Source: Allolobophora icterica (Eukaryota; Annelida; Clitellata; Crassiclitellata; Lumbricidae). Taken from it: DNA of 64,000 nt. The notes below the pieces were generated by a model. That model ran no database searches, was not told the DNA's origin, and saw only the letters and a list, made by a program, of their open reading frames with translations. Location: NCBI GenBank assembly GCA_963556255.1, contig OY744611.1, positions 4,499,730 to 4,563,729 on the forward strand, given 5' to 3'. This document shows positions 9,980-49,954 of this stretch, one piece after another (the first letter of the stretch is position 1; the number at the start of each line of letters is the position of its first letter). A program made the position numbers and the translations under genes.

Positions 9980-25404
<15,425 letters not shown>

Positions 25405-31076: not shown

Positions 31077-31340
31077 AGTAGTACAATTGGTTCGATTCTA
31101 GGCCACTGTTCAGTAAACAGTGCAAATGCCCATCACAGGTGCAAATGCCAATCGCAGGTGCATCAAGGTCTAAGGTGGAATCTAACCCACGCGGCATGTA
31201 GCGAGATCGTAAAATAGCATGTATGTCATTATGGTTCAGGAACATTTATCATCTAATTAAAAATCAGTTAGGCCTATAGATATAAGGGATAGTTCGTTAA
31301 CGCGCCTTTGTCATTTTTGTGTGGTTATCGGAGCGAAAGT
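31077..31340 (+). repeat. Left terminal inverted repeat of the Polinton, 264 bp
   Basis: Starts AGTAGTACAATTGGTTCGAT and matches the reverse complement of 49691-49954 at every base I compared; identity ends after GGAGCGAAAGT. Within it are a hairpin CACTGTT-CAGTA-AACAGTG (31104-31122) and two direct repeats of GTGCAAATGCC (from 31121 and 31140). Both could be sites for the integrase or the replication machinery; that role is inference. Confidence 0.95.
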
Positions 31341-31391
31341 GCATGCACTGAATGCGTGCGTGTTGTTATCGGGTGAACTACGGTATTACTA

Positions 31392-32110
31392 TCACAATGT
31401 CATTAATGTTTTGTTATCGACCCAAGAATTAAATGATTCAGGATAACCGAGCCATTTAACGAGAGATTTCTTTCCTCTTTTTCTAATGATCTTTTCGATC
31501 CTATAGACTTCCTGAGTCGTCTTTTGTAACTCCTGTTCGTAAAAAGTGCCCTGAATTTCTTCTCCGTTATAATCTGTTATCTTATAAGTCGGAGGATCGG
31601 TGTATTGAATTTTTGTCACAGTAAAGACTTCTTCTGTCCATCTAGGCGTATAGCCCTTTTCGAAGAACTTCTTCTTCTTAGAAATTCTGACTTTATCGCC
31701 TATTGAAAATTTAGGTTTATCAGGTGGTTCTGGGTGTAAACCGCCATATAAATTCATCCACACAGCGCTTTCATTTGCTTTCATACTCGCTTTTATTGGA
31801 GTCATTTTTATAGAAGAATGTCTAGTGTTGTTATAACGAGCAACCATATTATCTAAAACATCGATATATTTTCTAGTCGAATTAGCAGTAAAATATTTGA
31901 ACATTTTCTCCTTCATGGTTCTATTCCATCGTTCGATAACGGATGACTTCTCTTCATTCTCAGTAGAATATAACTGGATTCCAATTGATTTCACGTCTTT
32001 ATTGTAAAACTCTTTTCCTTTATCGACCCAAAGTTTCTCTGGTTTTCGTTCACTACTGGAAAATATTTTGGTGAAAGCATCGAACACAGATTTTCCGCTC
32101 TTATCTTTAT
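31392..32110 (-). CDS. Polinton integrase, C-terminal part (DDE core end and chromodomain)
   Basis: This is the second half of the retroviral-type integrase that inserts the element. It carries the second Asp (KLWVDKGKEFYN) and the Glu (SSVIERWNRTMKEK) of the D,D-E triad. It then has an SH3-like basic region (FSIGDKVRISKKKKFFEKGY) and a terminal chromodomain (EKIIRKRGKKSLVKWLGYP), a known feature of Polinton integrases. It is in a different frame from the N-terminal part; the break is near 32103-32108. I count 29 residues between the last Asp and the Glu, against the usual 35, so a small in-frame deletion is likely. The first Met of this frame (32087) is not a real start. Confidence 0.85.
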
Positions 32111-32872
32111 CGGAACAAGCCAGCCATATTTTGAAAAAATATCGATTACACCTAATAAATATTTAACGCCATCGTTATATTTCGCGAAAGCCTGCATGTC
32201 TATGAGGTCTGCAGCCCAAATTTGATCGAAACCTTTAACGTAAACCTTCCTTTTAGTAAAATGTCGTATTATCGGTTTATGCAATTCTTCAGCGAGTTCG
32301 TCCGTCCATTTTGACGGAGATTTTGCACCCGGCTTTGAATCGGATGATGTTAAACCCAAGCCAAGATTCGCTTTAGTAGACAAAATAGGTTTAACTATAG
32401 CTCTTTCGACGCGCTCACGTAATGTAGGATTATTTATATTATTTAAATCGTTTACCATTACTCTGTCGGCGACATTTCTAGCAGCTGTATCCGAATACTG
32501 GTCATAAGCTAAATCGTGACGATAAGCTGCTTGGTCGATTCTGTCCACAGGCTTACTCCAGTCTTTAGGTGAACCGTCAGGATTCAATCTTAAATCTAAT
32601 CTTGTTCCAGGGCCCGTAAACGAATGTCCTGGAAGATGCAATTCTCCAGGAAATTTAGCCCATGGCAGCTTTATATTTTTCGTAGCTGAATTTAAAGACC
32701 CAACTAGATCGCCTCCTTTTTTGGCAGTGGAAACAAATCGAGTTTTAGTTTTTCCGCAGCCGGAACATACGGCTCTAATCATAGGTCTTTTATTTTTACT
32801 GATGAAATTTTGAATATCTGTCATTTCGGTTTCTCTCTTGCACTTTACGCAATACATCTGTTCCATATACAT
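31991..32872 (-). CDS. Zinc ribbon, phospholipase-A2-like and integrase N-terminal fusion
   Basis: The 293-residue frame has three parts. Residues 7-46 form a zinc ribbon (C8-x2-C11 ... C36-x2-C39) like DUF5679. Residues about 80-135 resemble the parvovirus-capsid type of phospholipase A2, with a glycine-rich calcium-loop-like stretch (GHSFTGPGTRLD) and the HD-x2-Y catalytic pattern (YRHDLAYDQY; H119, D120, Y123). Residues about 190-255 are the integrase entry with the first catalytic Asp (IWAADLIDM). After KYGWLVPIK (near 32105) the frame leaves the integrase, and the last 30 or so residues are out of frame. Its start lies 35 bp from the divergent ATPase start. A virion PLA2 would help endosome escape; being fused to an integrase is odd. 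Confidence 0.8.
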   Translation of the reverse strand: MYMEQMYCVKCKRETEMTDIQNFISKNKRPMIRAVCSGCGKTKTRFVSTAKKGGDLVGSLNSATKNIKLPWAKFPGELHLPGHSFTGPGTRLDLRLNPDGSPKDWSKPVDRIDQAAYRHDLAYDQYSDTAARNVADRVMVNDLNNINNPTLRERVERAIVKPILSTKANLGLGLTSSDSKPGAKSPSKWTDELAEELHKPIIRHFTKRKVYVKGFDQIWAADLIDMQAFAKYNDGVKYLLGVIDIFSKYGWLVPIKIRAENLCSMLSPKYFPVVNENQRNFGSIKEKSFTIKT

Positions 32873-32907
32873 TTTAATATAAAACTATTTTTATAATTAA
32901 AAAAGAA
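32873..32907. promoter_or_regulatory. 35-bp divergent promoter region between integrase and ATPase
   Basis: The only non-coding sequence between the two divergent starts is an A/T-only-like stretch including TTTTAATATAAAACTATTTT. Any promoter for both genes must sit here or inside the coding regions. Confidence 0.5.
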
Positions 32908-33687
32908 ATGGAAGTTAAAGATTTATCTTGGAACGATGAGACATCGAAAAGATTTAATAACCCATTATTACCTAGAAGTATAAGGGGTCTGATCGTTGGG
33001 AAGTCTGGATGCGGTAAGACTACGCTACTATTAAATTTACTTTTGAACCCAGGATGGTTAGACTACGACAACCTACAGGTATTTGGAAGATCTCTCTTTC
33101 AACCAGAATATAAAATACTGAAAAAAGCATTCGAAGAAAAATTGCCTAAAGAAGCAATCGTCAGGTTGTTTGGTTGTCAAGACGAGATAGCCAGGTTAAA
33201 TGTATCTCCAATATCAGTCGTTGAAGAAATGGCTAAAAGTATAGTTAAAAAATCTGATATGAACTGTCGATTCTTTGAAACTTCGGAAGAAGTGCCCGAT
33301 CCGAGAGACTTGAGTGCCAAGCAGAACCTGATGATTTTCGACGACTTACAATTGGAAAAACAAAACAAATGCGAATCGTATTATATCAGAGGGAGACATA
33401 GTAATGTTGACTGCTTTTACCTCGCACAGAATTATTTTAAGCTGCCTAGACAGACTATCAGAGAGAATGCAAACTTTATCTGTTTATTTAGTCAAGATCT
33501 TAAAAATATTAATAATATATACAACGATCACGTAGGCGTAGATGATATGCCTAAAGACGAATTTGTAAAACTGTGCAAAACTGCGTGGGAGCGTCCGCAC
33601 GGATTTGTAGTGATAGATTTAACCAGTAAAAAGAATAACGGCAAATATAGAAGTGGGTTAGATACATTTTATATGCCTTCAGCATAA
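32908..33687 (+). CDS. DNA packaging ATPase (A32/FtsK-HerA type)
   Basis: The 259-residue protein has a P-loop GLIVGKSGCGKTTLL (GKSGCGKTT at 31-39) and a Walker B stretch LMIFDDL (141-147). A downstream arginine-rich segment SYYIRGRHSNVDCFYLAQN is also present, as in genome-packaging ATPases of Polintons, adintoviruses and large DNA viruses. Its role is to pump DNA into the capsid. Length is usual for the family. The start follows an AATTAAAAAAGAA leader with no spacing. It is the first of the rightward genes, followed 55 bp later by the minor capsid gene. No breaks are seen. Confidence 0.92.
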   Translation: MEVKDLSWNDETSKRFNNPLLPRSIRGLIVGKSGCGKTTLLLNLLLNPGWLDYDNLQVFGRSLFQPEYKILKKAFEEKLPKEAIVRLFGCQDEIARLNVSPISVVEEMAKSIVKKSDMNCRFFETSEEVPDPRDLSAKQNLMIFDDLQLEKQNKCESYYIRGRHSNVDCFYLAQNYFKLPRQTIRENANFICLFSQDLKNINNIYNDHVGVDDMPKDEFVKLCKTAWERPHGFVVIDLTSKKNNGKYRSGLDTFYMPSA

Positions 33688-33699
33688 GCCTTCAGCTTC

Positions 33700-33742
33700 T
33701 TCATAAGTTATATATTATATATATTATATATATATATATAAA
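33700..33742 (+). promoter_or_regulatory. (TA)n box directly against the minor capsid start codon
   Basis: TATATATTATATATATTATA and further TA repeats end in ATAAAATGG, so the start codon is within a few bases of the TATA-like box. The same arrangement precedes most rightward genes of this element (34585, 35253, 36319, 39866, 43693, 44167, 44977). Confidence 0.6.
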
Positions 33743-34534
33743 ATGGAAGCGCGGTTAGAAAAGATAGTTCTGAACACAGAAAAGATCGCTCGTAACACGG
33801 AGCCTAAAGAGTCATTCAGCATTTTGGTGAGCGAAAGGAGCACGCAAATTCGAACAAAATTTAATCCTCTGATTCAACTTGACAAAAACAAAAAGTATGA
33901 AATGTGTCTTGTTAATCTTGAGACTTATAATTCCTTCCCGAATATATATTCTGGAAACAACAAGTTTGTGTATTCGCCGGATAATAGTAAAACGTGGTTT
34001 ACTATAGAAATCCCAGAAGGAAGTTACGAAATCGTAGATATAAACGAACACATTCAGAGAATCATGAAACAATCAGGACATTATGACGAAACGGGAGATG
34101 CGTACTGTATAACGTTACAAGCGAACAACAATACTTTGAAGTCGGTGTTAGATATCGGTGCTAACTATCAGGTTAATATGACAATCGAGAACTCGATTAG
34201 AACTGTTTTAGGATTTAATAGCCGAGTGTATTCAGAAGGATATAACGAATCCGAGAACATAGTAAATATAATGAACGTAAATAGTTTGAGAGTAACCAGC
34301 GACGTAATAGGATCTTCGTACTCTAACGGAACAACGGAAAACATTATATATTCCTTTTTCCCGAATGTAGGCCCCGGATACAAGATTATAGAAGTGCCCG
34401 TTAATTTAGTATATCTTCCTATTACGCTATTTACGATTTCAGCTATGGAAACAAAACTCACAGATCAAAATGGAAAACTAATCAACCTTCGAGGAGAGGA
34501 GTTGTCGATCAGGTTTAAAATTAGAGAAGTGTGA
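33743..34534 (+). CDS. Minor capsid (penton-like) protein candidate
   Basis: The 263-residue protein is mostly predicted beta by eye. Features seen often in Polinton/adintovirus penton-like proteins are present: a middle segment with FTIEIPEGSYEIVDINEHI, a conserved VLGFNSRVY, and a C-terminal INLRGEELSIRFKIREV. In this family a single jelly-roll protein of this size fills the capsid vertices. The N-terminal 25 residues (LEKIVLNTEKIARNTEPKES) look helical and may contact the interior or a fibre. Placement between ATPase and core-protein genes fits. No catalytic motif is seen. Identification rests on pattern and context. Confidence 0.75.
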   Translation: MEARLEKIVLNTEKIARNTEPKESFSILVSERSTQIRTKFNPLIQLDKNKKYEMCLVNLETYNSFPNIYSGNNKFVYSPDNSKTWFTIEIPEGSYEIVDINEHIQRIMKQSGHYDETGDAYCITLQANNNTLKSVLDIGANYQVNMTIENSIRTVLGFNSRVYSEGYNESENIVNIMNVNSLRVTSDVIGSSYSNGTTENIIYSFFPNVGPGYKIIEVPVNLVYLPITLFTISAMETKLTDQNGKLINLRGEELSIRFKIREV

Positions 34535-34584
34535 GAATTAATTATCGTGGTATTAAAGTTTTTAATTTCAATTATATATATAAA

Positions 34585-35214
34585 ATGAGTCGATATACCA
34601 ATACAAAAGTTAATGTTTCGGATGGACAAAAAGACAAAATTAAACGCGCAGTTGAGGCAGGGACAGGAACGAGTATAAGACTAACTCACGGAGATCTATC
34701 CGGGGAACACGTTTTAGCTCTTACACGAGCACAAATTAATAAAATGGCGAAAGCATATCAGAATGGAACTGGTACTACGCTCAAAATGAGTAAAACGCAA
34801 ATAGACCATAATAATATTATGAAAGTCGAAGGCGGTTTTCTTCCAGCGTTATTACCACTTCTAGCTACAGCTGGAAAATTTCTTCTTTCTAGGGTTCTGC
34901 CAAGTCTTGCAACTGGAGCTTTAAGCGGATTAGCGAGTACAGGTGTTAGCAAAATGATGGGATCGGGTGTTAATGGAGGTGCTTTATACATAAAGAAAGG
35001 AGGAAGAAGCTACAAGATGGTTCCGCACGCAGCAGGTCTTTACCTGAAACCATGGTCAGGATCTGGATTAGACGGTGTAGGAGAAGGACTGTACATGCGC
35101 AGAGGTTCTGGATTTGTCAATGGTTCAGGATTGATTCTTGGAAACGACAATCCCATTTCAAAAGTACTTTCTAGTATTCCAATCCTTGGACCCCTTCTTG
35201 GTATGATTCTGTAA
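34585..35214 (+). CDS. pX-like small core/membrane-active virion protein
   Basis: The start chosen is the ATG at 34585, right after ATTATATATATAAA; the frame is open upstream to 34531 but overlaps the previous stop. The 209-residue product has a Lys/Thr-rich N-terminus, a hydrophobic centre GGFLPALLPLLATAGKFLLS (around residue 75) with Gly/Ala/Leu repeats, and a glycine-rich C-terminus ending ILGPLLGMIL. This layout matches the proteins called pX-like in adintoviruses, thought to condense DNA or disturb membranes. No enzymatic motif. Function is inferred from composition and position. Confidence 0.65.
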   Translation: MSRYTNTKVNVSDGQKDKIKRAVEAGTGTSIRLTHGDLSGEHVLALTRAQINKMAKAYQNGTGTTLKMSKTQIDHNNIMKVEGGFLPALLPLLATAGKFLLSRVLPSLATGALSGLASTGVSKMMGSGVNGGALYIKKGGRSYKMVPHAAGLYLKPWSGSGLDGVGEGLYMRRGSGFVNGSGLILGNDNPISKVLSSIPILGPLLGMIL

Positions 35215-35252
35215 AGGTTTTAATATATATATAAATATATATAATATATATA

Positions 35253-35654
35253 ATGTCGCGATACGGTATGCCAATACACAAGTTTATAACAAAACGCAAT
35301 TCTCCGAGCAGAGTTAGAACTCGACCAGAATCAGTATTTTGGTTGCCTAAAGAAGTAACGAATCGGGCTATAAGACAACCGGGCTCACAGCGTTGGGAAA
35401 TTTTCGCACAACGAGCGATCACAATTCAACCCAGATCGTCGGTCTCGCAAGAGCTAGGATTTGGCGTTCGACTAACTAGGGGAGTCTGTCTAGTCTCGCT
35501 TAGACAGGCGATTAAAGAAAAGAAATGTAGCTTGCAAGACTCAACCATTTGTGAAGATGTAGCAGACATTGTAATTACAATTCAAAACAATTCCGATTCT
35601 GTAGTCATCATTAACGAAAAAGATTCGCTATGCTACATTAATTACCACGTTTAA
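35253..35654 (+). CDS. dUTPase-fold candidate protein, 133 aa
   Basis: A small protein with a basic N-terminus (KFITKRNSPSRVRTRPES) and a beta-rich second half. LGFGVRLTRGVCLVSLRQA and a C-terminal DIVITIQNNSDSVVIINEKD recall strands of trimeric dUTPase-like folds, where a similar strand-turn-strand precedes the basal loop. The canonical catalytic dUTPase motifs are not convincing, so it may be a structural relative (several viral capsid-decoration proteins use this fold). A TA-rich box ending ATATATAATG abuts the start. I cannot name a function. Confidence 0.5.
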   Translation: MSRYGMPIHKFITKRNSPSRVRTRPESVFWLPKEVTNRAIRQPGSQRWEIFAQRAITIQPRSSVSQELGFGVRLTRGVCLVSLRQAIKEKKCSLQDSTICEDVADIVITIQNNSDSVVIINEKDSLCYINYHV

Positions 35655-35684
35655 ATTTAAAAAATCTTAATAATAATAATAATA

Positions 35685-36221
35685 ATGGAATATAAACATA
35701 TGGAAAATTCAGCGCAATCGTATCGTTTTAAAAAAATTAACGAAATTCAAAAAGAAATCGAACAAGAACGCGATAAAAGGACCGCCTTAAGTACAAAGTA
35801 TCGTAGGAACATAAGAATGATTAGCATTATCGACAACGCTCTGATAGTAACTGTGATGGGGCTCAGCAGCTCGGGACTGGCCGCTCTGGCTACTGTTATT
35901 GCAACTCCGGCCATAGCGATAGCAACAGGTACGGCAGTAGGTGTAGGATTGTTAATTATTATCGGAGGACAGGTTAGTAAGAAGCTTGCACTGAAATTGA
36001 CAAAGCACGAAAAGATCAAAACGTTAGCGGAAGCAAAACTAAACACAATCAGTAGCCTTATTTCAAAAGCTCTTGTGGACGACAATATTTCAGACGTTGA
36101 ATATTCGCTAATTCTAAGCGAGTTTGTGAAATTCAACGATATGAAAGAAAAAATTAAAAATAAAACCAAAATTAGCACAGAAAAATTAACGTTTAACGAG
36201 AACGTTTTAACTGGAACGTAA
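35685..36221 (+). CDS. Membrane protein with coiled coil, unknown function
   Basis: The 178-residue protein has an N-terminal charged helix (NEIQKEIEQERDKRTALSTK), then two adjacent hydrophobic segments: about 48-70 (ALIVTVMGLSSSGLAALATV) and about 75-97 (AIAIATGTAVGVGLLIIIGG). A Lys/Glu-rich tail follows (IKTLAEAKLNTISSLISKAL). Two close membrane helices with a short loop suggest a hairpin in a bilayer. Proteins of this design are common in Polinton/adintovirus elements, but I know no assigned role. It starts after a (TAA)n run. A membrane-remodelling or internal-lipid function is speculation. Confidence 0.65.
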   Translation: MEYKHMENSAQSYRFKKINEIQKEIEQERDKRTALSTKYRRNIRMISIIDNALIVTVMGLSSSGLAALATVIATPAIAIATGTAVGVGLLIIIGGQVSKKLALKLTKHEKIKTLAEAKLNTISSLISKALVDDNISDVEYSLILSEFVKFNDMKEKIKNKTKISTEKLTFNENVLTGT

Positions 36222-36318
36222 ATTAAACGTTCGAAATCAACGTTCGTAATTACGTTCGAATTTACGTTCGAATTTACGTTTAAAAAATATAGCTATAAGC
36301 TTATATAAGTAAAATATA
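36222..36318 (+). promoter_or_regulatory. Repetitive TTACGTTCGAA spacer and TATA box before the DUF8207-like gene
   Basis: Contains ACGTTCGAAATCAACGTTCG and further AATTACGTTCGAATTTACG repeats, then TATAAGCTTATATAAGTAAA next to the ATG at 36319. The repeats form overlapping palindromes (TTCGAA) and could be an operator-like site. Confidence 0.45.
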
Positions 36319-37251
36319 ATGTCGTTTCTAAAGATAACCGATCCCGCAAAAAGAGATTTTATCGTTGAGGAGTTTCTGAAATCGAAGAAGAATATTCGAC
36401 AAAACTTTTTATCCGAGAGATTAGGAGACATCGGACTACAACGAGAATTAACGAGATTGTACAAACCAATAGTCGACTCGCAATCAACAATTTCAAAAGA
36501 ACAAAAGGCTTTGTTATCTACTAAAAAAGAAAACTCTGCAGAGACAGCTAACGCTTTAAAAGCGCTTCCCGCTTCTATTTCGACATCGTTAAAAGCCATT
36601 CAGCTTCCTCAATACCCTTCGATACAGGCTTACGGAGAAGACCCGGTAGGCCTAGAAGATATAAAAACCTTAGAACTAGGAGATATTGCGGTGAAGTACC
36701 TGCAACAATACGCGTCCGATAAAAAGACGGTAGACACAACGTTCGGTATAAACTCAAAAGCCGGCCAATTTTATATAGGCGACAGTCCTATATCGATCGA
36801 CGGCAATAACGTGACGGTAGGCGATAGGCCTAAGATATACGAAGGAACTCCAGGACTTTGGGAATTATTAACGATGGCCAAACCGGACGAGTCGATTTTC
36901 AATGCAAACGATCGGGAAGAATATGCCGAGATTCTGAAGATAACGAATGCTATGAGGCAGCCGAAAAATCCAAGTAAACCAAAATCCTCTAGGAGCTTAA
37001 AATATAAAAATATTATTAAACCGATATGGGACTCGATGATGTCAAAGGCGCAAGGTAAAGGAATAGGCCTACAGCGTATCGTTATTCCTCAAGATCCTAA
37101 TGCATTAATAGAAATGTTATCTCTGCGAATGGCCAGCTTCGAGGCGGGGAATACGGGTGTGAGAAATGAGATAGTTGGTATATGCGACGAGTTACTAAGA
37201 CAAGGAGCGATAAATAAAAATGAATATAAAAATATAATGCTATTAATATAA
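36319..37251 (+). CDS. DUF8207-like Polinton protein, 310 aa
   Basis: The protein has a helical N-terminal half (DPAKRDFIVEEFLKSKKNIR, long Lys/Glu/Leu stretches). A core follows reading FGINSKAGQFYIGDSPISID then IYEGTPGLWELLTM (about residues 150-190). The G-x-FYIG...I.I....YEGTPGLWELL pattern is the one I associate with DUF8207, found almost only in Polinton/adintovirus elements. A basic linker (KPKSSRSLKYKNIIKPIWDS) and a helical end follow. Its role is unknown; a virion-assembly or DNA-linked structural job is a guess. Only 3 bp separate it from the next gene, suggesting read-through transcription or a promoter inside it. Confidence 0.65.
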   Translation: MSFLKITDPAKRDFIVEEFLKSKKNIRQNFLSERLGDIGLQRELTRLYKPIVDSQSTISKEQKALLSTKKENSAETANALKALPASISTSLKAIQLPQYPSIQAYGEDPVGLEDIKTLELGDIAVKYLQQYASDKKTVDTTFGINSKAGQFYIGDSPISIDGNNVTVGDRPKIYEGTPGLWELLTMAKPDESIFNANDREEYAEILKITNAMRQPKNPSKPKSSRSLKYKNIIKPIWDSMMSKAQGKGIGLQRIVIPQDPNALIEMLSLRMASFEAGNTGVRNEIVGICDELLRQGAINKNEYKNIMLLI

Positions 37252-37254
37252 AAA

Positions 37255-37788
37255 ATGTTAGTAGTTGCTAAAAGAAGGTATAAGAAAAAATATGTTATCG
37301 GAGGGGCGGGAATATTCGATATTGTTGCGGGTTTTTTCAAGAAACTATTTACGTCGAATGCGGCTAAACAAATAGCGTCCACCGCTCTCAGCGTAGGAAA
37401 AGATGCGGCTAAAGACATCGGGCAGAAAGCGCTGGATGTTGGTAAAACTGTCGTTGCTGACGCCGGGAAACGATTAGTCGATAAAGCGGTTGCTAAAATT
37501 ATGAGTCCCAAAAATTTACCGACTACAAGGTCAGCTGCTACGGAACTCGCTTCACAAACGCTTCCAGCGCTTTTAGCGTTCCAACCGCAGCTGAATGAAG
37601 GCAAAGACTTGCTAACTCAAGAAAGTAAAGACGTCCTAAATAGACTTATTAACGACGGAACGCGTTCGAAGAGTACAAATATAAATAATTTAATGATGGG
37701 GCACGGTATGAATTCCAATGCAAAGAGCGCTATTAGAATTCAAGATCTCGTTAGACGTTTAAACGGAGGTGGATTGAAAGTTGCATAG
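37255..37788 (+). CDS. pVI-like amphipathic virion protein
   Basis: The 177-residue protein begins with a very basic stretch (AKRRYKKKYVIGGAG). It then has a hydrophobic/amphipathic helix (IFDIVAGFFKKLF) and long Ala/Lys/Asp repeats (GKDAAKDIGQKALDVGKTVV). This arrangement resembles adenovirus protein VI-like lytic factors and their Polinton counterparts, which line the capsid and disrupt membranes. The C-terminus ends IQDLVRRLNGGGLKVA; GG pairs such as NGGG could be adenain-like protease sites, given the protease gene downstream. That is inference. The gene directly precedes the major capsid gene. Confidence 0.65.
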   Translation: MLVVAKRRYKKKYVIGGAGIFDIVAGFFKKLFTSNAAKQIASTALSVGKDAAKDIGQKALDVGKTVVADAGKRLVDKAVAKIMSPKNLPTTRSAATELASQTLPALLAFQPQLNEGKDLLTQESKDVLNRLINDGTRSKSTNINNLMMGHGMNSNAKSAIRIQDLVRRLNGGGLKVA

Positions 37789-37835
37789 GTTATTTATATT
37801 TAAATAAAATAAAATCATATATTATTAATAAAAAA

Positions 37836-39755: not shown

Positions 39756-39865
39756 GATTTTGGGAAAAAATAAAATAAATAAAAAATTAAACATAAATAA
39801 AATGTTTGTGTTTTTCTTAAACAACACTTAAAGAAATGAATATATATATATGTATATATAAAGGA

Positions 39866-41728: not shown

Positions 41729-43661
41729 TCAGAATGAGAAAATTAAATGCATTCCTAATAACGAAGAGAAGTACATATCGTTTAGCAGAGAAGTGATCGT
41801 TGATAAGTTTCTAAACAAAGAAGGGAAAGAAATTAACGTTAAACGTGAATTGCGATTCATCGACAGTTATAGATTCATGGCATCGAGTCTTGACGCTTTA
41901 TCGAAGAATCTGAAGAAAGAACAATGTAAAAATCTTGGTGCATTATATTCTGGGAAACAGCTCGATCTTTTACTTAAAAAAGGAATTTACCCGTACGATT
42001 ACGTTACTTCCGTCGCTATATTTAACGAAACCGAACTACCTCCGAAGTCCGCATTTTATTCGCGGCTGAACGACTCAGATATTAGCGACGAAGATTACGA
42101 TCACGCCAAAAATGTATGGAATGCATTCGGATGTAAAACGTTTAGAGAATACCACGACCTGTACAATGTTTCGGATGTTCTACTCTTAGCCGATGTTTTC
42201 GAAAACTTTAGAGACGTATGCATGAAGAATTACCGACTAGATCCCGCATGGTATTACACTTCTCCGGGACTGGCCTGGGATGCTGCTTTGAAGTTGACCG
42301 GTATAAAGTTGGAGTTGTTGAGCGATTACGATATGATTCTGATGATTAAGCAAGGAATAAGAGGAGGAATCAGCACAATTTCGAATCGTTATGGGAAAGC
42401 CAACAATAAGTATATGACGGCGGATAAATTCGATAGCAGCGAGCCTTCGGCATATATAACTTATCTAGACGCTAATAATTTATACGGTTGGGCGATGAGC
42501 AAGCCTTTACCGACTCGTGGATTTAAATGGATGAGTGAAGACGAGCTAAATAATTGGAATTTATTGGGATCGTGTATATTGGAAGTCGATTTAGACTATT
42601 CTGAAAAATTGCACGATCTCCACAACGACTACCCCCTGGCTCCCGAGAGCATCTCGTCGGAATTTACATATAAAATACCAAAACTAATTCCAAACTTGAA
42701 CGATAAAAAGAAATACGTTGTACATCACGAAAATTTAAAGTTGTACGAAAGTCTCGGGTTGAAAATCGCGAAAATTCACAGAGGGATACTATTCGAAGAA
42801 AGTCCTTGGTTGAAGTATTATGTAGATCTAAACACAAACTTGAGAACGAGTGCTACTAATAACTTTGAGAAAGACTTTTTCAAATTGATGAACAATAGCG
42901 TCTTTGGAAAAACCCTTGAAAGAATCGAAAATCATGTAGATATAAAATTGGTATGTCACGAGAAGGAAGCTATTAAGCTAGCAGCAAAAACGAATTATGA
43001 CCGCCTGACGATTTTCGACGAGAATCTAATCGCCGTTCACATGAAAAGAACGAAGTTGTTTTATAATAAACCGATATACCTAGGCATGTGCATATTAGAT
43101 TTAAGTAAAACTTTGATGTACGACTTTCATTACAATTTTATACGGCAAAAATACGGCGATAGAGCTAAATTGTTATTTACCGATACAGATTCGTTGGCAT
43201 ATGAAATACAAACAGAAGATTTTTACGACGATATCGCTCAAGACGTTGCGGTTCGATTCGATACGAGTGATTACCCTGAAGATCACCCATCGGGTTTAAA
43301 GACCGGACTGAACAAGAAAGTAATCGGTATGTTCAAAGACGAATCAGCAGGAAAACAGATTTACGAGTTTATAGGTTTAAGGGCCAAGTTGTACTCGTAT
43401 AGAATGGATGGTGAAGAACACAAGAAGTGTAAAGGCATTAAGCAAAATGTTGTTAAGAAAACGATAACTCATGATGATTATAAAAACTGTCTTTTTACCA
43501 AGAGAGAACGACTAAGAAAAATGAACGTTTTTAGATCGTATCATCACGATATTTATACCGAACAGGTAAATAAAGTCGCATTATCCGCGGATGATGACAA
43601 ACGAGTAATAATGGAAGACGGTATTCATACATTAGCTTACGGACATTACTCGTTACGCTGA
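41718..43661 (+). CDS. polB: Protein-primed family B DNA polymerase, C-terminal part
   Basis: This frame continues the polymerase after the break at the A8 run. It has the end of the exonuclease (FREYHDLYNVSDVLLLADVF, ExoIII-like), then palm motifs: A (TYLDANNLYGWAM), B (FKLMNNSVFGKTLE) and C (LLFTDTDSLAYE), all with their aspartates and lysine in place. A thumb region with the TPR-like insert typical of protein-primed enzymes follows, ending LAYGHYSLR. Together the two parts cover about 1,260 residues, normal for Polinton polymerases. The single one-base difference is the only lesion seen. The first ATG of this frame is not a natural start. Confidence 0.92.
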   Translation: MRGDQNEKIKCIPNNEEKYISFSREVIVDKFLNKEGKEINVKRELRFIDSYRFMASSLDALSKNLKKEQCKNLGALYSGKQLDLLLKKGIYPYDYVTSVAIFNETELPPKSAFYSRLNDSDISDEDYDHAKNVWNAFGCKTFREYHDLYNVSDVLLLADVFENFRDVCMKNYRLDPAWYYTSPGLAWDAALKLTGIKLELLSDYDMILMIKQGIRGGISTISNRYGKANNKYMTADKFDSSEPSAYITYLDANNLYGWAMSKPLPTRGFKWMSEDELNNWNLLGSCILEVDLDYSEKLHDLHNDYPLAPESISSEFTYKIPKLIPNLNDKKKYVVHHENLKLYESLGLKIAKIHRGILFEESPWLKYYVDLNTNLRTSATNNFEKDFFKLMNNSVFGKTLERIENHVDIKLVCHEKEAIKLAAKTNYDRLTIFDENLIAVHMKRTKLFYNKPIYLGMCILDLSKTLMYDFHYNFIRQKYGDRAKLLFTDTDSLAYEIQTEDFYDDIAQDVAVRFDTSDYPEDHPSGLKTGLNKKVIGMFKDESAGKQIYEFIGLRAKLYSYRMDGEEHKKCKGIKQNVVKKTITHDDYKNCLFTKRERLRKMNVFRSYHHDIYTEQVNKVALSADDDKRVIMEDGIHTLAYGHYSLR

Positions 43662-43692
43662 GCACATAAAGAATCTATTCGTTGATTATAAA

Positions 43693-44133
43693 ATGAGTTT
43701 TAGAAGTGTTACAGAAATCGACGTTTGCGGAGTCGTGTTACCGAATGTTCCTTTGTCGAATATACAACTGCTAGACGCCGCTAAGAAGAAACTAAATATC
43801 ACAAACTGTAGAGGCGTGTTCCTACGAGACGAGTTGCCCGAGAGACCGAGTACTAACGAAAGCGGCATTCTTAACCTAGATAAATCTAGTGGGAGCGGGA
43901 CTCATTGGGTGTGTTGGATCAAGAAGAAAGGCGAAATTTCGGCGAAATATTTCGATGGCTATGGTCTCCCTCCACCTACCGAGCTATTGGAATATTTACG
44001 CAGTCCGGTTTATTATAACAGCGAACGAATACAGCCCGATAACGAAGTGTTTTGCGGTCATCTGTGTCTGTACGTGTTGAAGATGATGGACGATGGCGCT
44101 AATTTTCAAGAAGTTATAAACGGTTTATTTTAA
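43693..44133 (+). CDS. Adenain-like cysteine protease (Ulp1/C5 fold)
   Basis: The 146-residue protein has the triad pattern of adenovirus-type and SUMO-type proteases in order: His71 in GTHWVCW, Asp88 in KYFDGYG, Cys121 in VFCGHLCLYVL, with Gln114 as a possible oxyanion residue. It would process virion precursors such as the pVI-like and pX-like proteins. The length is short, as expected for Polinton proteases. The start follows GATTATAAA directly. The 3' end (CGGTTTATTTTAATAT) is copied again upstream of the second fibre-like gene, marking the boundary of a duplication. Confidence 0.85.
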   Translation: MSFRSVTEIDVCGVVLPNVPLSNIQLLDAAKKKLNITNCRGVFLRDELPERPSTNESGILNLDKSSGSGTHWVCWIKKKGEISAKYFDGYGLPPPTELLEYLRSPVYYNSERIQPDNEVFCGHLCLYVLKMMDDGANFQEVINGLF

Positions 44134-44166
44134 TATATATATATATCTATATATATATATTATAAA

Positions 44167-44874
44167 ATGCCTGTGGATAAATTCGGACATACTGATGTTG
44201 GATATTCTGAAAGAGTAATTGCCGGAGGAGTTACACTGTCTCAAGCAAATGCTACTTTCCTTCGTATGGATGGAACAAACGCTGCAACTGGAAATATTAA
44301 TTTAGATTCTCATAAAATTGTCAACGTGTTAGAACCTACCAATCCCCAAGATGGTGCTACCAAATATTACGTAGATAATGCTCATAAAAAATGTTATCTC
44401 GGATATATACCTAATTTAGAAACCGACGACAGTAGTACCGGATTCGTCGCTAGTGCCAGTTCGCACAAAGACGGATATCGAGCGTACGGAGCGTTCAATA
44501 GTCTAAACGCGGATGGTTTGAACGGATCTTGGGTTTCTAATGATTCTTTAAATACCTGGATACAGATAAAATGTCCAGAGCCGGTTAAAATTTGGCGAAT
44601 CGCGTTGAAAGCCATCGATAATGTATATAAAATACACAGTGTCTTTTGGACCATATCAGGGCGTAACGACGGCGATTCGACATTTACGACGTTATTTACG
44701 ATGACGACTCCGTTATTGAGAACCGCAACTGCCCCGTCATTTTTCAATATTTCAACGAATACTGCGTATCAGTATTACAGATTTACGAAAACACATATTC
44801 CCGGTGGGACTATTATTATCGGTCAGATTAACGTAGGACTTCATAGCATACAATTATACATATACGATACTTAA
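44167..44874 (+). CDS. Fibre-like protein 1 (tail-fibre repeat plus discoidin-like head)
   Basis: The 235-residue product has an N-terminal stretch that reads like phage tail-fibre repeats: FLRMDGTNAATGNINLDSHK, then NVLEPTNPQDGATKYYVDNA. In phages this pattern forms trimeric shafts. The C-terminal about 130 residues (TGFVASASS ... WIQIKCPEPVKIWRIALKA ... FTTLFTMTTPLL ... YQYYRFTKT) resemble the F5/8 type C (discoidin) fold used for sugar or lipid binding. It is probably a receptor-binding spike at the capsid vertex. The N-terminal 50 residues (MPVDKFGHTDVGYSERVIAG) are nearly identical in gene 2 and may be the capsid anchor. Function is inferred. Confidence 0.7.
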   Translation: MPVDKFGHTDVGYSERVIAGGVTLSQANATFLRMDGTNAATGNINLDSHKIVNVLEPTNPQDGATKYYVDNAHKKCYLGYIPNLETDDSSTGFVASASSHKDGYRAYGAFNSLNADGLNGSWVSNDSLNTWIQIKCPEPVKIWRIALKAIDNVYKIHSVFWTISGRNDGDSTFTTLFTMTTPLLRTATAPSFFNISTNTAYQYYRFTKTHIPGGTIIIGQINVGLHSIQLYIYDT

Positions 44875-44976
44875 ATCGTGGTAGGCTATTCAGCCTCCTT
44901 TGAGCTCATGAGCTCACCAGACGGTTTATTTTAATATAAATAAAATATATATACATTGTATTAATATATACTAAAA
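44875..44976 (+). other. Spacer between fibre-like genes, with copied protease 3' end
   Basis: Contains GACGGTTTATTTTAATATAA, matching the end of the protease gene (AACGGTTTATTTTAATATAT at 44121-44140). It also has an AGCTCATGAGCT palindrome and a TA-rich box ending ATATATACTAAAA against the next ATG. This marks the repeat unit of the fibre duplication. Confidence 0.6.
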
Positions 44977-46068
44977 ATGCCTGTGGATAAATTCGGACAT
45001 ACTGATGTTGGATACTCGGAAAGAATAATTGCCGGAGGAGTTACATTGTCTCAAGCAAATGCTACTTTCCTTCGTATGGATGGAACAAACGCCGCGACCG
45101 AGAATATTAATTTAGATTCTCATAAACTGGTCAACGTGTTAGAACCTACTAATTCCCAAGATGGTGCTACCAAAAATTACGTAGATATTAATAGCGGTGT
45201 AAACAAAGTTTCTAAGACTGGTGACGTTATGACCGGCAATCTATTTTTAAGTGTGGGCTCGGATCGTCAACGTAATATGGGGTGTAAGGATCTACGCGGA
45301 AACAAACTGTTTGCTTTGATACTGGGTAATCTGTCAAACAAAATAGAAGGTTATTTAAACCAACCTATAACGTTGCAATCGATCGAAGGTTTCTTGTGCA
45401 AAGTGGGAACGGAAAATATAATTCGATTCGGTAAATCGTCCAGTGACCATAAAATCGATGTTTACCAAGATATCGTTATGAGACAAAAATCTATAACCGA
45501 TTTAAAAGACCCCGTTAACCTTCAAGATGCCTCCACCAAAAATTACGTCGATAACGCTCTTAGTAGAGCGGATAATATTGCTCTTAAAAAGTGTCATATC
45601 GGATACATACCTATTTTGGAGGCTGATGAAAGTGTTACCGGATTTATCGCTAGTGCTAGTTCAACTGTTACTGACAAGTATCAAGCGTATGGAGCTTTCA
45701 ATAGTCTAAATGCAGATGGTTCAAACGGAACATGGATCGCGGATAGTAGATCAATCCTAAATGTCTGGCTGCAGATAAAATGTCCTGAGCCTGTTAAAAT
45801 TTGGAGAATTGCGTTGAAAGCGATAAGACACAACAGAGGCACATACCAGATTACAAACTGGATTTTAAACGGAAGTAACGATGGATCAACGTTCACCCAA
45901 TTACTAAGATCGACGCAGGCATTATTAAACACCGAAGCTGCTCCGTCATTTTTTAATCTTACAACGACTCCGATTGCGTACCAGTATTACAGACTTACAG
46001 TAACAAGCAACCCCAGTCACACTGTGGTAGGAGTAGAAGTCCTACAATTATACGTGTACGACACATAA
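44977..46068 (+). CDS. Fibre-like protein 2 (longer paralogue)
   Basis: The 363-residue paralogue of the upstream gene has the same MPVDKFGHTDVGYSERIIAG start. It has two shaft blocks, PTNSQDGATKNYVD and DPVNLQDASTKNYVDNALSR. Between them is a KTGDVMTGNLFLSVG segment, the classic D-x-M-T-G-x-L motif of phage tail fibres, absent from copy 1. The C-terminal discoidin-like head is conserved in layout (ASASSTVTDKYQAYGAFNSL, WLQIKCPEPVKIWRIALKAI) but diverged in loops. This is what one expects of tandem receptor-binding genes changing specificity. The N-terminal DNA of the two copies is almost identical, so duplication or gene conversion was recent. Confidence 0.72.
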   Translation: MPVDKFGHTDVGYSERIIAGGVTLSQANATFLRMDGTNAATENINLDSHKLVNVLEPTNSQDGATKNYVDINSGVNKVSKTGDVMTGNLFLSVGSDRQRNMGCKDLRGNKLFALILGNLSNKIEGYLNQPITLQSIEGFLCKVGTENIIRFGKSSSDHKIDVYQDIVMRQKSITDLKDPVNLQDASTKNYVDNALSRADNIALKKCHIGYIPILEADESVTGFIASASSTVTDKYQAYGAFNSLNADGSNGTWIADSRSILNVWLQIKCPEPVKIWRIALKAIRHNRGTYQITNWILNGSNDGSTFTQLLRSTQALLNTEAAPSFFNLTTTPIAYQYYRLTVTSNPSHTVVGVEVLQLYVYDT

Positions 46069-46748
46069 TGAATACATAAGACAAATATACGAGGGGGCTG
46101 TCCGGACAATTCCTTCTCCGGGGCTGGTTCTAAAACTGAATCATTGCTGTAACGAACGACCAAAAGCAAGAGCAAAAAAAACCGAAAATATATACGGAAA
46201 CGGATACTAGATTAAATTAGAAGGCTGATATATTAGCTTAAACTTGTGGTCGTTAGATATATACAATTGTCTGAAAAATTTCGATTGGCAAGATCTGTGT
46301 GCTAGCACTAGCATATCATTCCATGCTAAGACTTAAATCAAGGCGACAGGCCTGCCATGGAAGGTCTCCTTAAAAGAGACCGTAGCAGAATCGACGATTT
46401 TTATACGACCCCGAAAGAACACACACAAAATGCCATCCATACTAAGACTTAAATCAAGGCGACAGGTCTGCCATCGAAGGTCTCCTTAAAGGAGACCGTA
46501 GCAGAATCGATGATTTTTATACGACCCCCTAATGAACTGGTAATATCCGCGCTGTGGTAATGTATTGGAATAATCCTTTCATTTCCAAAAGACAGCGAGA
46601 AGCATATATGCTTAATGTATTTGTCTATCATAGTCAAAATTATAATATTTCAGTAATTCAGTCTAATAACAATTATGTCTATCGTAATCGTAATCTTTAA
46701 GTTTTCTCATGCGTCCAAAAGCGAAGTTATGGAAACCAGCTTATTTTT
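46069..46748. repeat. Two 113-bp repeats with GGTCTCC/GGAGACC hairpins, 3' of the minus-strand gene
   Basis: Copies begin near 46322 and 46436: CTAAGACTTAAATCAAGGCG, ACAGGCCTGCCAT, then the hairpin GGTCTCCTTAAAAGAGACC, then GCAGAATCGACGATTTTTAT and ACGACCCC. The second copy has a compensated hairpin (CTTAAAGG), so both stems pair. A third copy is at 47676-47800 inside the intron. No gene is seen in 46069-46748. Confidence 0.75.
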
Positions 46749-49330
46749 TTACAGAATCATTCTACTGGTACCGGCGATGGGTGAACTCGGTTCCAGGTTA
46801 ATATCCATATCAAGCAGGTCGTCAGACAGATTTGTTCTTCCTACTTCCGCTTCAGCACAATGTTTATAGAACTCTGTAATAGCTTTATCGTCAAGGATAG
46901 GTCTCTCTGGGTTGACGTCTGTATCATCTTCGAAAACATGATCTGGATTTACAGCAAACGGCAATTTGGTTGCTGGAAAGGTGGGCACGTTCACCGGCGT
47001 AATGTCAAGACATTTGTTATGTACAGATATATTGAATTCCAATTTCAGCCTATTAGCAAGTTCATTGTCTGTGATGAGATGCTCCTTAATACGGTTATGA
47101 TGACTTGAGAACTGGGAAAACGTCAAACCACAAAATAGAAGGCGCGGATAGGTTTTGATAATAGTTGTGAATGCAATATATCGTTGAATGGTCGCATAGG
47201 CCACGTTGAATTCCTGAGGGAACCATTGTTTAACAATTGCATCTGTAGGCGAAAATTTACGTGCGGTCAAATAAATCAATCCACGGTGATAAGCCATTAC
47301 AAGATGCAGATTTGTTGTCATTCTTTCTTGTTCAGTGACCACCAAGTGTGTCTTTTTAATGGAATCCAAATCCAATAATTCAAACTTATTGATAAAATCA
47401 AGATTCAGAATCCATTCAGATTCATCAGCACTATTTTCCATCTGTTCATATTTTTCAATACGTTCTCGTATTTGTGGGAGAATTTTGGATTTGAAATTCT
47501 CTGTGTCAGATGGACCCGACGCTTTTGAAGAAATGAGACCACCAGTGGCGGAGCAGGGTTTTTGGGACCCCTTCAGCCCTCTTCGATCTGAAACAAAAAA
47601 AACGCTATTCCAAAACACTTGGCGATTTTGCGATATTTGCATCAATCGATCAATTTAAATAAATTTAGTTTATTCTTGAAAGCATCAAAGGTCTCGTTAA
47701 AAAGAGACCTTAGCAGAATCAACGATTTCTATACGGTCCCTAATGAACACAAAGTGCCATCCATGCTATGACTTAAATCAAGGCGACAGGCCTGCCATCG
47801 AACCTCTGCAGAATCGTTAACATTCAGACTACCCCTGGCGAACAACACTAAAGATACAGCGGTCTCGTTTTGCGAGACCTCTGCAGAATCGTTAATATTC
47901 AGACTACCCCTGGCGAACAACACTGAAGATACAGCGGTCTCGTTTTGCGAGACCTCTGCAGAATCGGTAATATTCAGACTACCCCTGGCGAACAACACTG
48001 AAGATACAGCGGTCTCGGTTTGCGAGACCTCTGCAGAATCGTTAATATTTAGACTACCCCTGGCGAACAACACTGAAGATACAGCGGTCTCGTTTTGCGA
48101 GACCTCTGCAGAATCGTTAATATTCAGACTACCCCTGGCGAACAACACTGAAGATACAGCGGTCTCGTTTTGCGAGACCTCTGCAGAATCGTTAACATTC
48201 AGACTACCCCTGGCGAACAACACTAAAGATACAGCGGTCTCGTTTTGCGAGACCTCTGCAGAATCGTTAATATTCAGACTACCCCTGGCGAACAACACTG
48301 AAGATACAGCGGTCTCGTTTTGCGAGACCTCTGCAGAATCGTTAATATTCAGACTACCCCTGGCGAACAACACTGAAGATACAGCGGTCTCGTTTTGCGA
48401 GACCTCTGCAGAATCGTTAATATTCAGACTACCCCTGGCGAACAACACTGAAGATACAGCGGTCTCGTTTTGCGAGACCTCTGCAGAATCGTTAATATTC
48501 AGACTACCCCTGGCGAACAACACTGAAGATACAGCGGTCTCGTTTTGCGAGACCTCTGCAGAATCGTTAATATTCAGACTAATACCCCTGGCGAACAACA
48601 CTGAAGATACAGCGGTCTCGTTTTGCGAGACCTCTGCAGAATCGTTAATATTCAGACTAATACCCCTGGCGAACAACACTGAAGATACAGCGGTCTCGTT
48701 TTGCGAGACTTCTGCAGAATCGTTAATATTCAGACTACCCCTGGCGAACAACACTGAAGATACAGCGGTCTCGTTTTGCGAGACCTCTGCAGAATCGTTA
48801 ATATTCAGACGAACTTGGGAAATGGGGTTTTTTCCTGGACACTTGGGTTTTTTGCTTGGGTTTTTCTTATTTTACCATCATCATCATCATCAAAGTCTGC
48901 AGAAAACCTACCTTGGGTTTTCTTGGGTTTTTTAGTGTCCCAACTTGGGTTTTTTCATTTTTCTACAGTGGTAACACTGCAACGCAATATGATTACAAGT
49001 CATAGTATGAACGGAGGTTCATAAGTTATTACAGGAGTCGAATTTAACTGTAGGCAGCCACTAAGTGCGCCCATCACGTCCTACTAAGCAATTGAGAGTG
49101 AAAGACTTGCTCAGTAAAAAGGAATTCGATACAACGATTCAGAAGCACTTACCTTTAGACCTAACAATCTTCCCTTTCGCTGATTTACGCAACAAATCGC
49201 GAATCGTCTGTAACTTCTTCTCAAAGCTGACTCTATCATTGCGGATTTAAAAAACGGTGTTAATAACTGAACGTATATCATCCTTTGATGATTTAGCGAT
49301 ATCCAATATGAAATCTGCACCGTCAGACAT
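46749..49330 (-). CDS. Spliced Polinton gene of unknown function (two exons)
   Basis: Exon 1 (49330-49153) starts MSDGADFILDIAKSSKDDIR and ends AAAG/GTAAGTG. Exon 2 (47587-46749) starts after TTTTTTTTGTTTCAG and reads DRRGLKGSQKP into an 838-nt open frame to the TAA at 46749. The junction is in frame, giving 1,017 nt (338 residues). Exon 2 contains YATIQRYIAFTTIIKTYPRL and LLFCGLTFSQFSSHHNRIKE, helical by eye, and an acidic C-terminus. I do not recognise the family. A TAA at 49247-49249 interrupts exon 1 in the same frame, after INTVF, while the frame beyond (NDRVSFEKKLQTIRDLL) looks coding. The copy is therefore probably broken, or the start is further in. The intron holds the hairpin array. 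Confidence 0.6.
47676..47800. repeat. Third copy of the 113-bp hairpin repeat, inside the intron
   Basis: Reads GGTCTCGTTAAAAAGAGACC, TTAGCAGAATCAACGATTTC, TATACGGTCCC, then CCATGCTATGACTTAAATCA and AGGCGACAGGCCTGCCATCG. It runs directly into the tandem array, so the array probably grew from this copy. Confidence 0.75.
47806..48810. repeat. Tandem array of 13 hairpin units (75-78 bp) in an intron
   Basis: Each unit holds GGTCTCGTTTTGCGAGACC (a 7-bp stem) followed by TCTGCAGAATCGTTAATATT, CAGACTACCCCTGGCGAACA and ACACTGAAGATACAGC. I count 13 hairpins. Most units are 75 bp; two (near 48580 and 48660) have an extra ATA, giving 78 bp. One hairpin has GGTTTGC in place of GTTTTGC. Because lengths are multiples of three there is a 341-residue frame on the minus strand, but it lies in the intron and has no independent support. 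Confidence 0.9.
48811..49152. other. Intron 5' part with CTTGGGTTTTTT repeats
   Basis: Contains ACTTGGGTTTTTT-type words at 48826, 48838, 48852, 48913, 48922 and 48943, and a short (ATC)n run at 48876-48892. No coding feature. Confidence 0.5.
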
Positions 49331-49539
49331 TTTGAAAAACAATGATGCAACCTGACCTGAATAAGCGCGCAGAATTTTGAACTGTGAACTGTGATTGGCC
49401 AGCGCCGTCGACTTGTAAGCATGACTGTGAACCCCGCGTTTATTTGCGAGTTGGTACCAATGCGCCATCCAGCAGCCACTCATCGATCCACACCTATCAT
49501 AAGTCCTGTTACTCATCTCTGCCTGTTTAAAAGAAATAA

Positions 49540-49640
49540 ATCTAAATTACACAGCTCGAGGGTAGAATCGAACTCACGACCCTTCGCTTGCCCGGCGGAA
49601 AGCTTAACGCTGCACCACCGATGCTCAGTTAAGCGAGGAA
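49540..49640 (-). repeat. tRNA-like SINE head inside the Polinton
   Basis: Read on the minus strand it has GGTGGTGCAGCGTTAAGC (A box-like) and GTGAGTTCGATTCTACCC (B box-like), about 35 bases apart. The stems do not close into a full tRNA. It lies between exon 1 of the spliced gene and the right terminal repeat, so it inserted into the element or was carried by it. Confidence 0.5.
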
Positions 49641-49690
49641 GGAAAGAAAGGTATTTGTACGCATTCACCTTCCGACACCTAGCGAGTATA

Positions 49691-49954
49691 ACTTTCGCTC
49701 CGATAACCACACAAAAATGACAAAGGCGCGTTAACGAACTATCCCTTATATCTATAGGCCTAACTGATTTTTAATTAGATGATAAATGTTCCTGAACCAT
49801 AATGACATACATGCTATTTTACGATCTCGCTACATGCCGCGTGGGTTAGATTCCACCTTAGACCTTGATGCACCTGCGATTGGCATTTGCACCTGTGATG
49901 GGCATTTGCACTGTTTACTGAACAGTGGCCTAGAATCGAACCAATTGTACTACT
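49691..49954 (-). repeat. Right terminal inverted repeat of the Polinton, 264 bp
   Basis: Reverse complement of 31077-31340, ending ATCGAACCAATTGTACTACT at 49954. No mismatch seen. Confidence 0.95.

What the first reader, a model, noticed from the sequence alone, without database searches (positions are those of the whole stretch)
31077..49954. Complete 18.9-kb Polinton/adintovirus-like element with identical 264-bp TIRs and perfect TSD
Seen: the terminal repeats agree at every base compared over 264 bp, the 6-bp duplication CAGAAT is exact, and the full set of integrase, polymerase, ATPase, protease and capsid-candidate genes is present. Known: this combination defines Maverick/Polinton elements and their adintovirus relatives. 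Inference: a recent insertion, possibly still able to make virions if the two frameshifts are errors.
Basis: partly seen in the sequence, partly recalled or inferred. Interest (0 to 1): 0.92.

Follow-up and report, generated by a model that had tools for sequence, protein, structure and literature searches.

The report
Young Polinton family, one damaged copy
This is one damaged copy of a young family of virus-like jumping elements (Polintons) in an animal-like genome; the family is of a known kind, but it joins a membrane-cutting domain to its integrase in one protein, which may tie entering a cell to inserting into its genome.

Summary
In detail: an 18,878-bp element (31077-49954), terminal repeats identical in 264/264 bases, exact duplication CAGAAT, ends AGTAGT...ACTACT as printed for vertebrate Mavericks. 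It carries RVE integrase with chromodomain, PolB, A32-type ATPase, adenain-like protease, double-jelly-roll capsid protein (E=1.9e-57) and a probable penton: a Polinton. Adintovirus membership stays open. Integrase and PolB are each cut by a frame change in this copy. The host genome holds at least 12 other copies with the same left end; in 12 of 12 the integrase frame, and in 10 of 10 a PolB stretch over the break, is uninterrupted, so the damage is this copy's own. In those 12 copies zinc-ribbon, phospholipase A2 and integrase form one 497-aa frame; pooled pN/pS is 0.11 in PLA2 and 0.09 in integrase. The fusion is therefore real and under selection; I found it in no paper. Two tandem fibres with phage-type stalks and discoidin heads are kept in most copies. 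Repeat identity is no safe clock: 5 of 8 other paired copies have right repeats only 90% like this copy's.

The parts
31071..31076 (.). left target-site duplication CAGAAT
31077..31340 (+). left terminal inverted repeat, begins AGTAGT
   Evidence: end motif from PMC8097293
31392..32162 (-). integrase, second part (stop-free frame): rest of catalytic core, chromodomain
   Evidence: 30% over 174 columns to the intact integrase of L001, E=2e-14; rve_3 E=0.0052, rve 0.07, Chromo 2.1e-4, all below Pfam cut-offs; HP1 chromodomain in PDB E=7.8e-4
31991..32872 (-). 293-aa frame: DUF5679 zinc-ribbon (7-46), phospholipase A2-like domain (77-150), start of integrase core (202-256); a frame change cuts it from the next part in this copy only
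   Evidence: PF18930 5e-12 and PF08398 2.4e-10, above cut-off; residues 202-256 match L002 integrase 59-114 (17/56, E=0.024, 3e-4); one uninterrupted 497-aa frame in 12 of 12 other copies
32908..33687 (+). genome-packaging ATPase (A32/FtsK type)
   Evidence: PF04665 1.4e-9; L002 ATPase 23%, E=4e-6
33743..34534 (+). probable penton / minor capsid protein
   Evidence: L002 ORF 1588-2430, 25% over 134 columns, E=1e-4 for the single comparison; model failed, pLDDT 28.9
34585..35214 (+). candidate core protein (weak adenovirus protein X match)
   Evidence: PF05829 E=0.0027, below cut-off
35253..37788 (+). four ORFs of unknown function (35253-35654, 35685-36221, 36319-37251, 37255-37788)
   Evidence: no family above cut-off
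37836..39131 (+). major capsid protein, double jelly-roll
   Evidence: PF21738 E=1.9e-57
39213..39755 (+). HeH/LEM-like plus NUMOD1-like protein
   Evidence: PF12949 2.7e-5, PF07453 0.0019, both below cut-off
39836..41728 (+). PolB, first part: Rho_N-like start, OTU-like region (Cys292, His389), later N-terminal half
   Evidence: 29% over 517 columns to residues 108-612 of L001 PolB, E=5e-68
41712..43661 (+). PolB, second part; frame change from the first part within 41712-41728, in this copy only
   Evidence: 44% over 688 columns to residues 623-1282 of L001 PolB, E=9e-165; a 1,001-base stretch over the break is open in 10 of 10 other copies
43693..44133 (+). cysteine protease, Ulp1/adenain-like
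   Evidence: African swine fever virus protease S273R in PDB, E=0.0013; no Pfam match
44167..44874 (+). fibre 1: phage-tail-type stalk, discoidin (F5/8 type C) head
   Evidence: PF00754 8.2e-5, below cut-off; PHROG tail families
44977..46068 (+). fibre 2: same N-terminal 70 aa, about 130 aa more stalk, discoidin head
   Evidence: PF00754 2.1e-8; phage tail fibre and carbohydrate-binding matches
46320..48810 (.). accessory repeats: 116-bp x 1.8 (46320-46528), 75-bp x 13.4 (47802-48810), interrupted by about 1.1 kb
46749..47642 (-). 297-aa ORF of unknown function in the interruption
49691..49954 (-). right terminal inverted repeat, ends ACTACT
49955..49960 (.). right target-site duplication CAGAAT

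Best explanation
It is a copy of a young, multi-copy Polinton/Maverick family: a virus-derived element inserted by its own RVE-type integrase, which leaves a 6-bp duplication, and copied by its own protein-primed-type PolB from the terminal repeats. The family's integrase is the C-terminal part of one protein that starts with a zinc-ribbon and a parvovirus-type phospholipase A2. The lineage is inferred to spread as particles: double-jelly-roll capsid, penton, packaging motor, maturation protease, two fibres attaching through discoidin heads, PLA2 opening the endosome as in parvoviruses. Shown: ends, duplications in nine copies, gene content, homology, the uninterrupted fused frame in 12 other copies and its purifying selection. 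Inferred: every activity, and whether the fused protein is cut. This copy is broken in integrase and PolB, alone among the copies examined.
For: Identical repeats and duplication; end motif; duplications in 8 of 8 other paired copies; MCP 1.9e-57 and ATPase; both PolB parts collinear with one intact 1,286-aa PolB and both integrase parts with one intact integrase; penton and protease matches; size and repeat length inside the printed ranges 12,723-24,620 bp and 46-1,447 bp. Fused 497-aa frame open in 12 of 12 other copies, no Met between PLA2 and core in 12 of 12, pooled pN/pS 0.22 over the frame: PLA2 0.11, linker 0.23, integrase 0.09, chromodomain 0.12. Fibre paralogues: head dS 1.03, dN 0.26.
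Against: Integrase and PolB are broken here. Pfam gave no PolB family for either part or for the intact relative. The relative's capsid protein has no similarity to this one (E=0.33). Penton match modest, its model failed. The zinc-ribbon stretch (residues 1-76) has pN/pS 0.62, far looser than the rest. The 66 copy pairs behind the pN/pS values are not independent. Copies were found by their left end, which favours young ones.
Confidence: 0.93

Rival explanations
1. It is an adintovirus in the strict sense rather than a Polinton of another clade.
For: Integrase with C-terminal chromodomain; Cys292 and His389 at the OTU-like place, kept in both sequences compared, as described in passages of PMC11071296 and PMC11071308.
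Against: OTU fold not confirmed: pLDDT 45.6, 0 of 175 Foldseek matches at E<=0.001 and no OTU protein by title among the 50 listed. No adintovirus hexon could be compared.
Confidence: 0.4
2. The zinc-ribbon-PLA2-integrase frame arose by a deletion in this copy and means nothing.
For: The IMG/VR relative has a stand-alone integrase whose first 58 residues have no match here; Spodoptera Mavericks carry PLA2 on a separate ORF (passages of PMC5803895).
Against: 12 of 12 other copies, at different insertion sites, have the same frame uninterrupted, under purifying selection.
Confidence: 0.03
3. The fused product is a polyprotein cut by the element's protease, so PLA2 and integrase act apart.
For: A protease gene is present; the linker is the fastest-changing stretch at silent sites and looser than both neighbours in residues (pS 0.148, pN 0.034).
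Against: No strict adenain-type site in the 293-aa frame; one relaxed site, no more than shuffles give (p=0.39; consensus recalled, specificity of this protease unknown).
Confidence: 0.45
4. The tail 46069-49690 is captured host repeats and a nested insertion, not part of the working set.
For: Repeat array with an about 1.1-kb interruption; no family above cut-off for the 297-aa ORF.
Against: Most vertebrate Mavericks have accessory regions with diverse ORFs; the repeats match nothing else in the window. Other copies' tails were not compared.
Confidence: 0.5
5. Assembly fold-back or contamination.
For: None found.
Against: Different host flanks with an exact duplication; further copies on other contigs with their own duplications.
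Confidence: 0.01

Closest known systems
Vertebrate Mavericks (PMC8097293; section on architecture read, else passages)
   Same: 6-bp duplication, (AGT)2//(ACT)2 ends, sizes, integrase, PolB, ATPase, capsid proteins, protease, accessory regions, several copies per genome
   Different: Gene order: here integrase alone on one strand and all other core genes on the other, against two facing modules there; the words phospholipase and fiber do not occur in that paper's main text
Spodoptera Maverick 1 and 2 (PMC5803895, passages)
   Same: ATPase, integrase with chromodomain, PolB, protease, PLA2 of parvovirus type
   Different: PLA2 lies on a separate ORF named CAP; here it heads the integrase frame behind a zinc-ribbon
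Protist polinton-like viruses with phage-like fibres (PMC12220804, passages)
   Same: Discoidin domains, singly or in pairs, and phage-tail-type repeats
   Different: PLVs of Rhizaria and glaucophytes; this element has PolB and RVE integrase and sits beside animal-like sequence
IMG/VR contig IMGVR_UViG_3300028392_002905 (L001/L002, host unknown)
   Same: PolB 29% and 44% over the two parts, integrase 30%, ATPase 23%, penton 25%
   Different: No similarity in MCP, stand-alone integrase, hydrolase-fold lipase instead of PLA2, fibre with endosialidase chaperone

Membership tests
Polinton/Maverick | terminal inverted repeats | tested here: met
   264/264
Polinton/Maverick | 6-bp target-site duplication | tested here: met
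   CAGAAT; 8 of 8 other paired copies
Polinton/Maverick | conserved end motif | tested here: met
   AGTAGT//ACTACT; motif from PMC8097293; one other copy has a changed last base
Polinton/Maverick | RVE-type integrase | tested here: met
   two frames here, one in 12 of 12 other copies; L001 integrase E=2e-14, itself rve 6.4e-8; direct Pfam rve only 0.07
[quoted passage not shown]
   L001 PolB; no Pfam PolB match; priming itself not tested
Polinton/Maverick | FtsK/A32 packaging ATPase | tested here: met
   PF04665 1.4e-9
Polinton/Maverick | Ulp1/adenain-like cysteine protease | tested here: met
   one PDB match, S273R, E=0.0013; weak
[quoted passage not shown]
   PF21738 1.9e-57
Polinton/Maverick | single-jelly-roll penton | tested here: inconclusive
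   25% over 134 columns to a candidate penton; fold not confirmed
Adintovirus (definition in PMC11071296) | integrase with C-terminal chromodomain | tested here: met
   Chromo 22.2 bits, cut-off 25.1; HP1 E=7.8e-4; sub-threshold but consistent
Adintovirus (definition in PMC11071296) | PolB with N-terminal OTU-like domain | tested here: inconclusive
   Cys and His aligned with L001; model and fold search gave nothing
Adintovirus (definition in PMC11071296) | hexon recognisable by BLASTP | not testable with these tools
   protein database off
Polinton-like viruses (PLV) | mostly lack PolB and RVE integrase (passage of PMC11071308) | tested here: not met
   both present

The most novel reading that the evidence does not exclude
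A young Polinton family has joined its entry enzyme to its integrase: zinc-ribbon and phospholipase A2 stand where the relative's integrase has its own N-terminal stretch, giving one particle-borne protein that opens the endosome and then inserts the genome, while two discoidin-headed, phage-type fibres give two receptor specificities. That would be sequence evidence for an infectious stage of a Polinton in an animal-like genome, with membrane breach and integration coupled in one molecule.
Probability: 0.35. Interest if true: 0.7.

Novelty: new variant of a known kind. Interest (0 to 1): 0.55.

Why it matters
The abstract of PMC8097293 (2021) says that Maverick particles have not been observed. 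PLA2 of parvovirus type and receptor-binding fibres make sense only if there is an entry step; both are kept under purifying selection here. A family with many near-identical copies makes the particle question testable in its host. The fused frame suggests a direct link of entry and integration.

Tried and rejected
Eight scans of IMG/VR (the cap): single proteins MCP, PolB, PLA2 frame, no relative; DNA patterns from the window's proteins, PolB 0 hits and 1 hit, L001, MCP 0, DUF5679 0; alignment search returned only the same contig. Misses may reflect the collection or my guesses of conserved positions. Phage records: no match for MCP or PLA2 frame. Structure prediction without alignments failed for penton candidate and OTU-like stretch; the fold search is not meaningful. 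PDB sequence searches with MCP, PLA2 frame and second PolB part gave no relevant match.

Rejected: a clear adenain-type site in the PLA2-integrase linker (none strict). Over 17 frames there were 12 strict sites against 6.5 in shuffles (p=0.024), 3 of the 12 in ORF 37255-37788 (p=0.004, not corrected for 17 tests). Rejected: both breaks at homopolymers (PolB is; the integrase break by homology is not). Rejected: programmed frameshifting in PolB, because 10 of 10 other copies are open over that stretch. Rejected: deletion artefact for the fusion. Not usable: fibre-1 statistics across copies, spoiled by an unrelated ORF of one copy (L033) that my length filter let in.

Literature: no paper holds DUF5679 or adintovirus + phospholipase A2 + integrase. 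Partial-term searches listed 20 of 21, 20 of 41, 1 of 1, 8 of 8 and 15 of 21 papers. I read passages on this point in PMC4642659, PMC3671162, PMC4061559, PMC5803895, PMC11071296, PMC11071308 and PMC12220804; none of those passages describes PLA2 on an integrase. The adintovirus founding paper is not held, so the absence is weak.

Full report
Ends. The arms 31077-31340 and 49691-49954 agree in 264 of 264 bases; CAGAAT flanks both ends. The element starts AGTAGT and ends ACTACT, which PMC8097293 gives as the commonest end motif of vertebrate Mavericks, with sizes of 12,723-24,620 bp and repeats of 46-1,447 bp (section read in full).

Genes. Integrase on the minus strand at the left; on the plus strand ATPase 32908-33687 (A32, 1.4e-9), penton candidate, a candidate core protein, four unknown ORFs, capsid protein 37836-39131 (PF21738, 1.9e-57), a HeH/NUMOD1-type protein, PolB in two frames, protease (S273R, E=0.0013) and two fibres.

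A distant relative. Eight scans of IMG/VR gave one relative, a contig of unknown host. Its intact PolB aligns with the first part of this PolB (residues 108-612, 29%) and the second (623-1282, 44%), so the frames are halves of one gene. Its integrase aligns collinearly: residues 59-114 with the end of the 293-aa frame (17 of 56 identical; E=0.024, 3e-4), 114-281 with the next frame (30%). ATPase 23%, penton candidate 25% over 134 columns. Its capsid protein shows no similarity, and Pfam has no PolB family for either polymerase.

The family in the genome. The genome search answered once: the genome has 1,117,693,669 bases in 328 contigs; 40 of 191 candidates were scored. Thirteen places match the left end through base 324 (12 at 98-100%, this copy included, one at 92%), 17 match only bases 89-324 at 100%, and 10 are right-end matches of 264 or 261 bases, five at 100% (this copy included) and five at 90%. 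Eight other copies could be paired end to end, about 17.9-21.9 kb; all eight have their own equal 6-bp duplication (7 directly; one with a changed last base). Five of these eight have right repeats only 90% like this copy's repeat, though their left ends are 98-100% like it. So repeats of one copy need not be identical and do not date it. A recombination of ends between copies is my guess.

The breaks. In this copy PolB changes frame in 41712-41728 at an A8 run and the integrase within 31991-32162, near 32,106 by homology. Of 12 other copies, 12 have the integrase frame uninterrupted. Of 11 PolB stretches fetched, one gave no match at the expected place and 10 of the other 10 are open over the break. 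So the breaks belong to this copy. I checked no other gene across copies except the fibres, and say nothing on which copy, if any, is whole.

The fused protein. The 293-aa frame carries DUF5679 at 7-46 and PLA2 at 77-150, both above Pfam's cut-offs, then the integrase core from about 202. No methionine lies in residues 151-225 here, nor between PLA2 and the core in 12 of 12 other copies. There the frame is 497 aa, stop to stop. Over 66 pairs (not independent) pooled pN/pS is 0.22: residues 1-76 0.62, PLA2 0.11, linker 0.23, integrase 0.09, chromodomain 0.12; 120 of 497 codons vary, 54 in residue; pairwise divergence 0.07-7.2%, median 1.7%. PLA2 is thus kept almost as strictly as the integrase. 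The zinc-ribbon stretch is loose. PLA2 in Polintons is known (passage of PMC4642659), on a separate ORF in Spodoptera (passages of PMC5803895). By analogy with parvoviruses it should act in entry; why it is on the integrase is inference: a polyprotein cut later, or a two-task protein carried in the particle.

Fibres. The two genes of this copy share 93% of the first 70 residues and 63% of 156 head codons; head dS 1.03, dN 0.264 (0.26), N-part dS 0.20, dN 0.035 (0.17, from 14 changes); head changes by codon position 44, 31, 64 (p=0.0026), synonymous against non-synonymous Fisher p=1.5e-10. An old duplication, both heads under constraint. Eight of 11 other copies have both fibre frames, by length and N-terminus or, in two of the eight, by a longer second frame that aligns to fibre 2; one copy shows a shortened fibre 1 (165 aa), one has no fibre-1 frame of that start, one gave none in the stretch fetched. 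Fibre 2 is 96-100% identical in its head among 11 copies, this one included, so its heads differ little between copies; pN/pS there is 0.62 on few changes. The stalk matches cyanophage tail fibres (27%, E=5e-8), the head an Erwinia phage carbohydrate-binding protein (31%, E=9e-9); 7 of 50,697 phage records match, some of them duplicate records; PHROG tail families and factor VIII (E=0.00044) agree. Discoidin domains are reported in protist PLVs (passage of PMC12220804).

Tail. 46069-49690 holds two 116-bp-type repeats, a 1.1-kb interruption with a 297-aa minus-strand ORF, and 13.4 copies of a 75-bp unit. The element has 16 GGTCTC hairpins; the pair next to the common stem is G-C in the array, C-G in one of the three longer-repeat hairpins and unpaired in the other two. 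Rfam found nothing in the window.

Adintovirus question. PMC11071296 (passages) asks for an OTU-like PolB domain, a recognisable hexon and a chromodomain on the integrase. The last is supported below Pfam's cut-off; the first is suggested by two kept residues but its model failed; the hexon test was impossible.

Host. Not named.

Noticed in passing
G000, 8 paired copies: In 5 of 8 other paired copies the right terminal repeat is only 90% like this copy's repeat while the left end is 98-100% like it: two kinds of repeat at the ends of one copy.
   Followed up: partly
G000: 17 places match only bases 89-324 of the left end, at 100%, without the outer 88 bases: perhaps a sister family with other tips.
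   Followed up: no
window 46320-48810: Two kinds of repeat share a GGTCTC...GAGACC hairpin; 16 in the element, the next stem pair turned from G-C to C-G in one of them.
   Followed up: partly
window 46541-47684: About 1.1 kb interrupts the array and holds a 297-aa minus-strand ORF; CAGTGGCGGAGC near 47545 resembles hAT transposon ends (recalled).
   Followed up: no
window 49550-49640: Looks tRNA-derived (SINE-like, recalled); ARAGORN finds no tRNA.
   Followed up: no
window 39213-39940: The HeH/NUMOD1 protein and PolB, neighbours, both begin with a SAP/HeH-like domain (PF12949 and PF07498, both below cut-off).
   Followed up: no
window 37255-37788: Three strict adenain-type sites against 0.45 in shuffles (p=0.004, 17 frames tested; consensus recalled), as a core protein cut in maturation might have.
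   Followed up: partly
window 57885-58487, 60097-61032, 12873-13454: BED/Spin-doc zinc-finger ORF, NHL-repeat ORF, and a frame like the tail of a LINE reverse transcriptase (the last by recall, no Pfam match).
   Followed up: no
L002: A Polinton-type contig that also pairs a lipase (hydrolase fold, weak Pfam matches) with a phage-type fibre, from other parts.
   Followed up: partly
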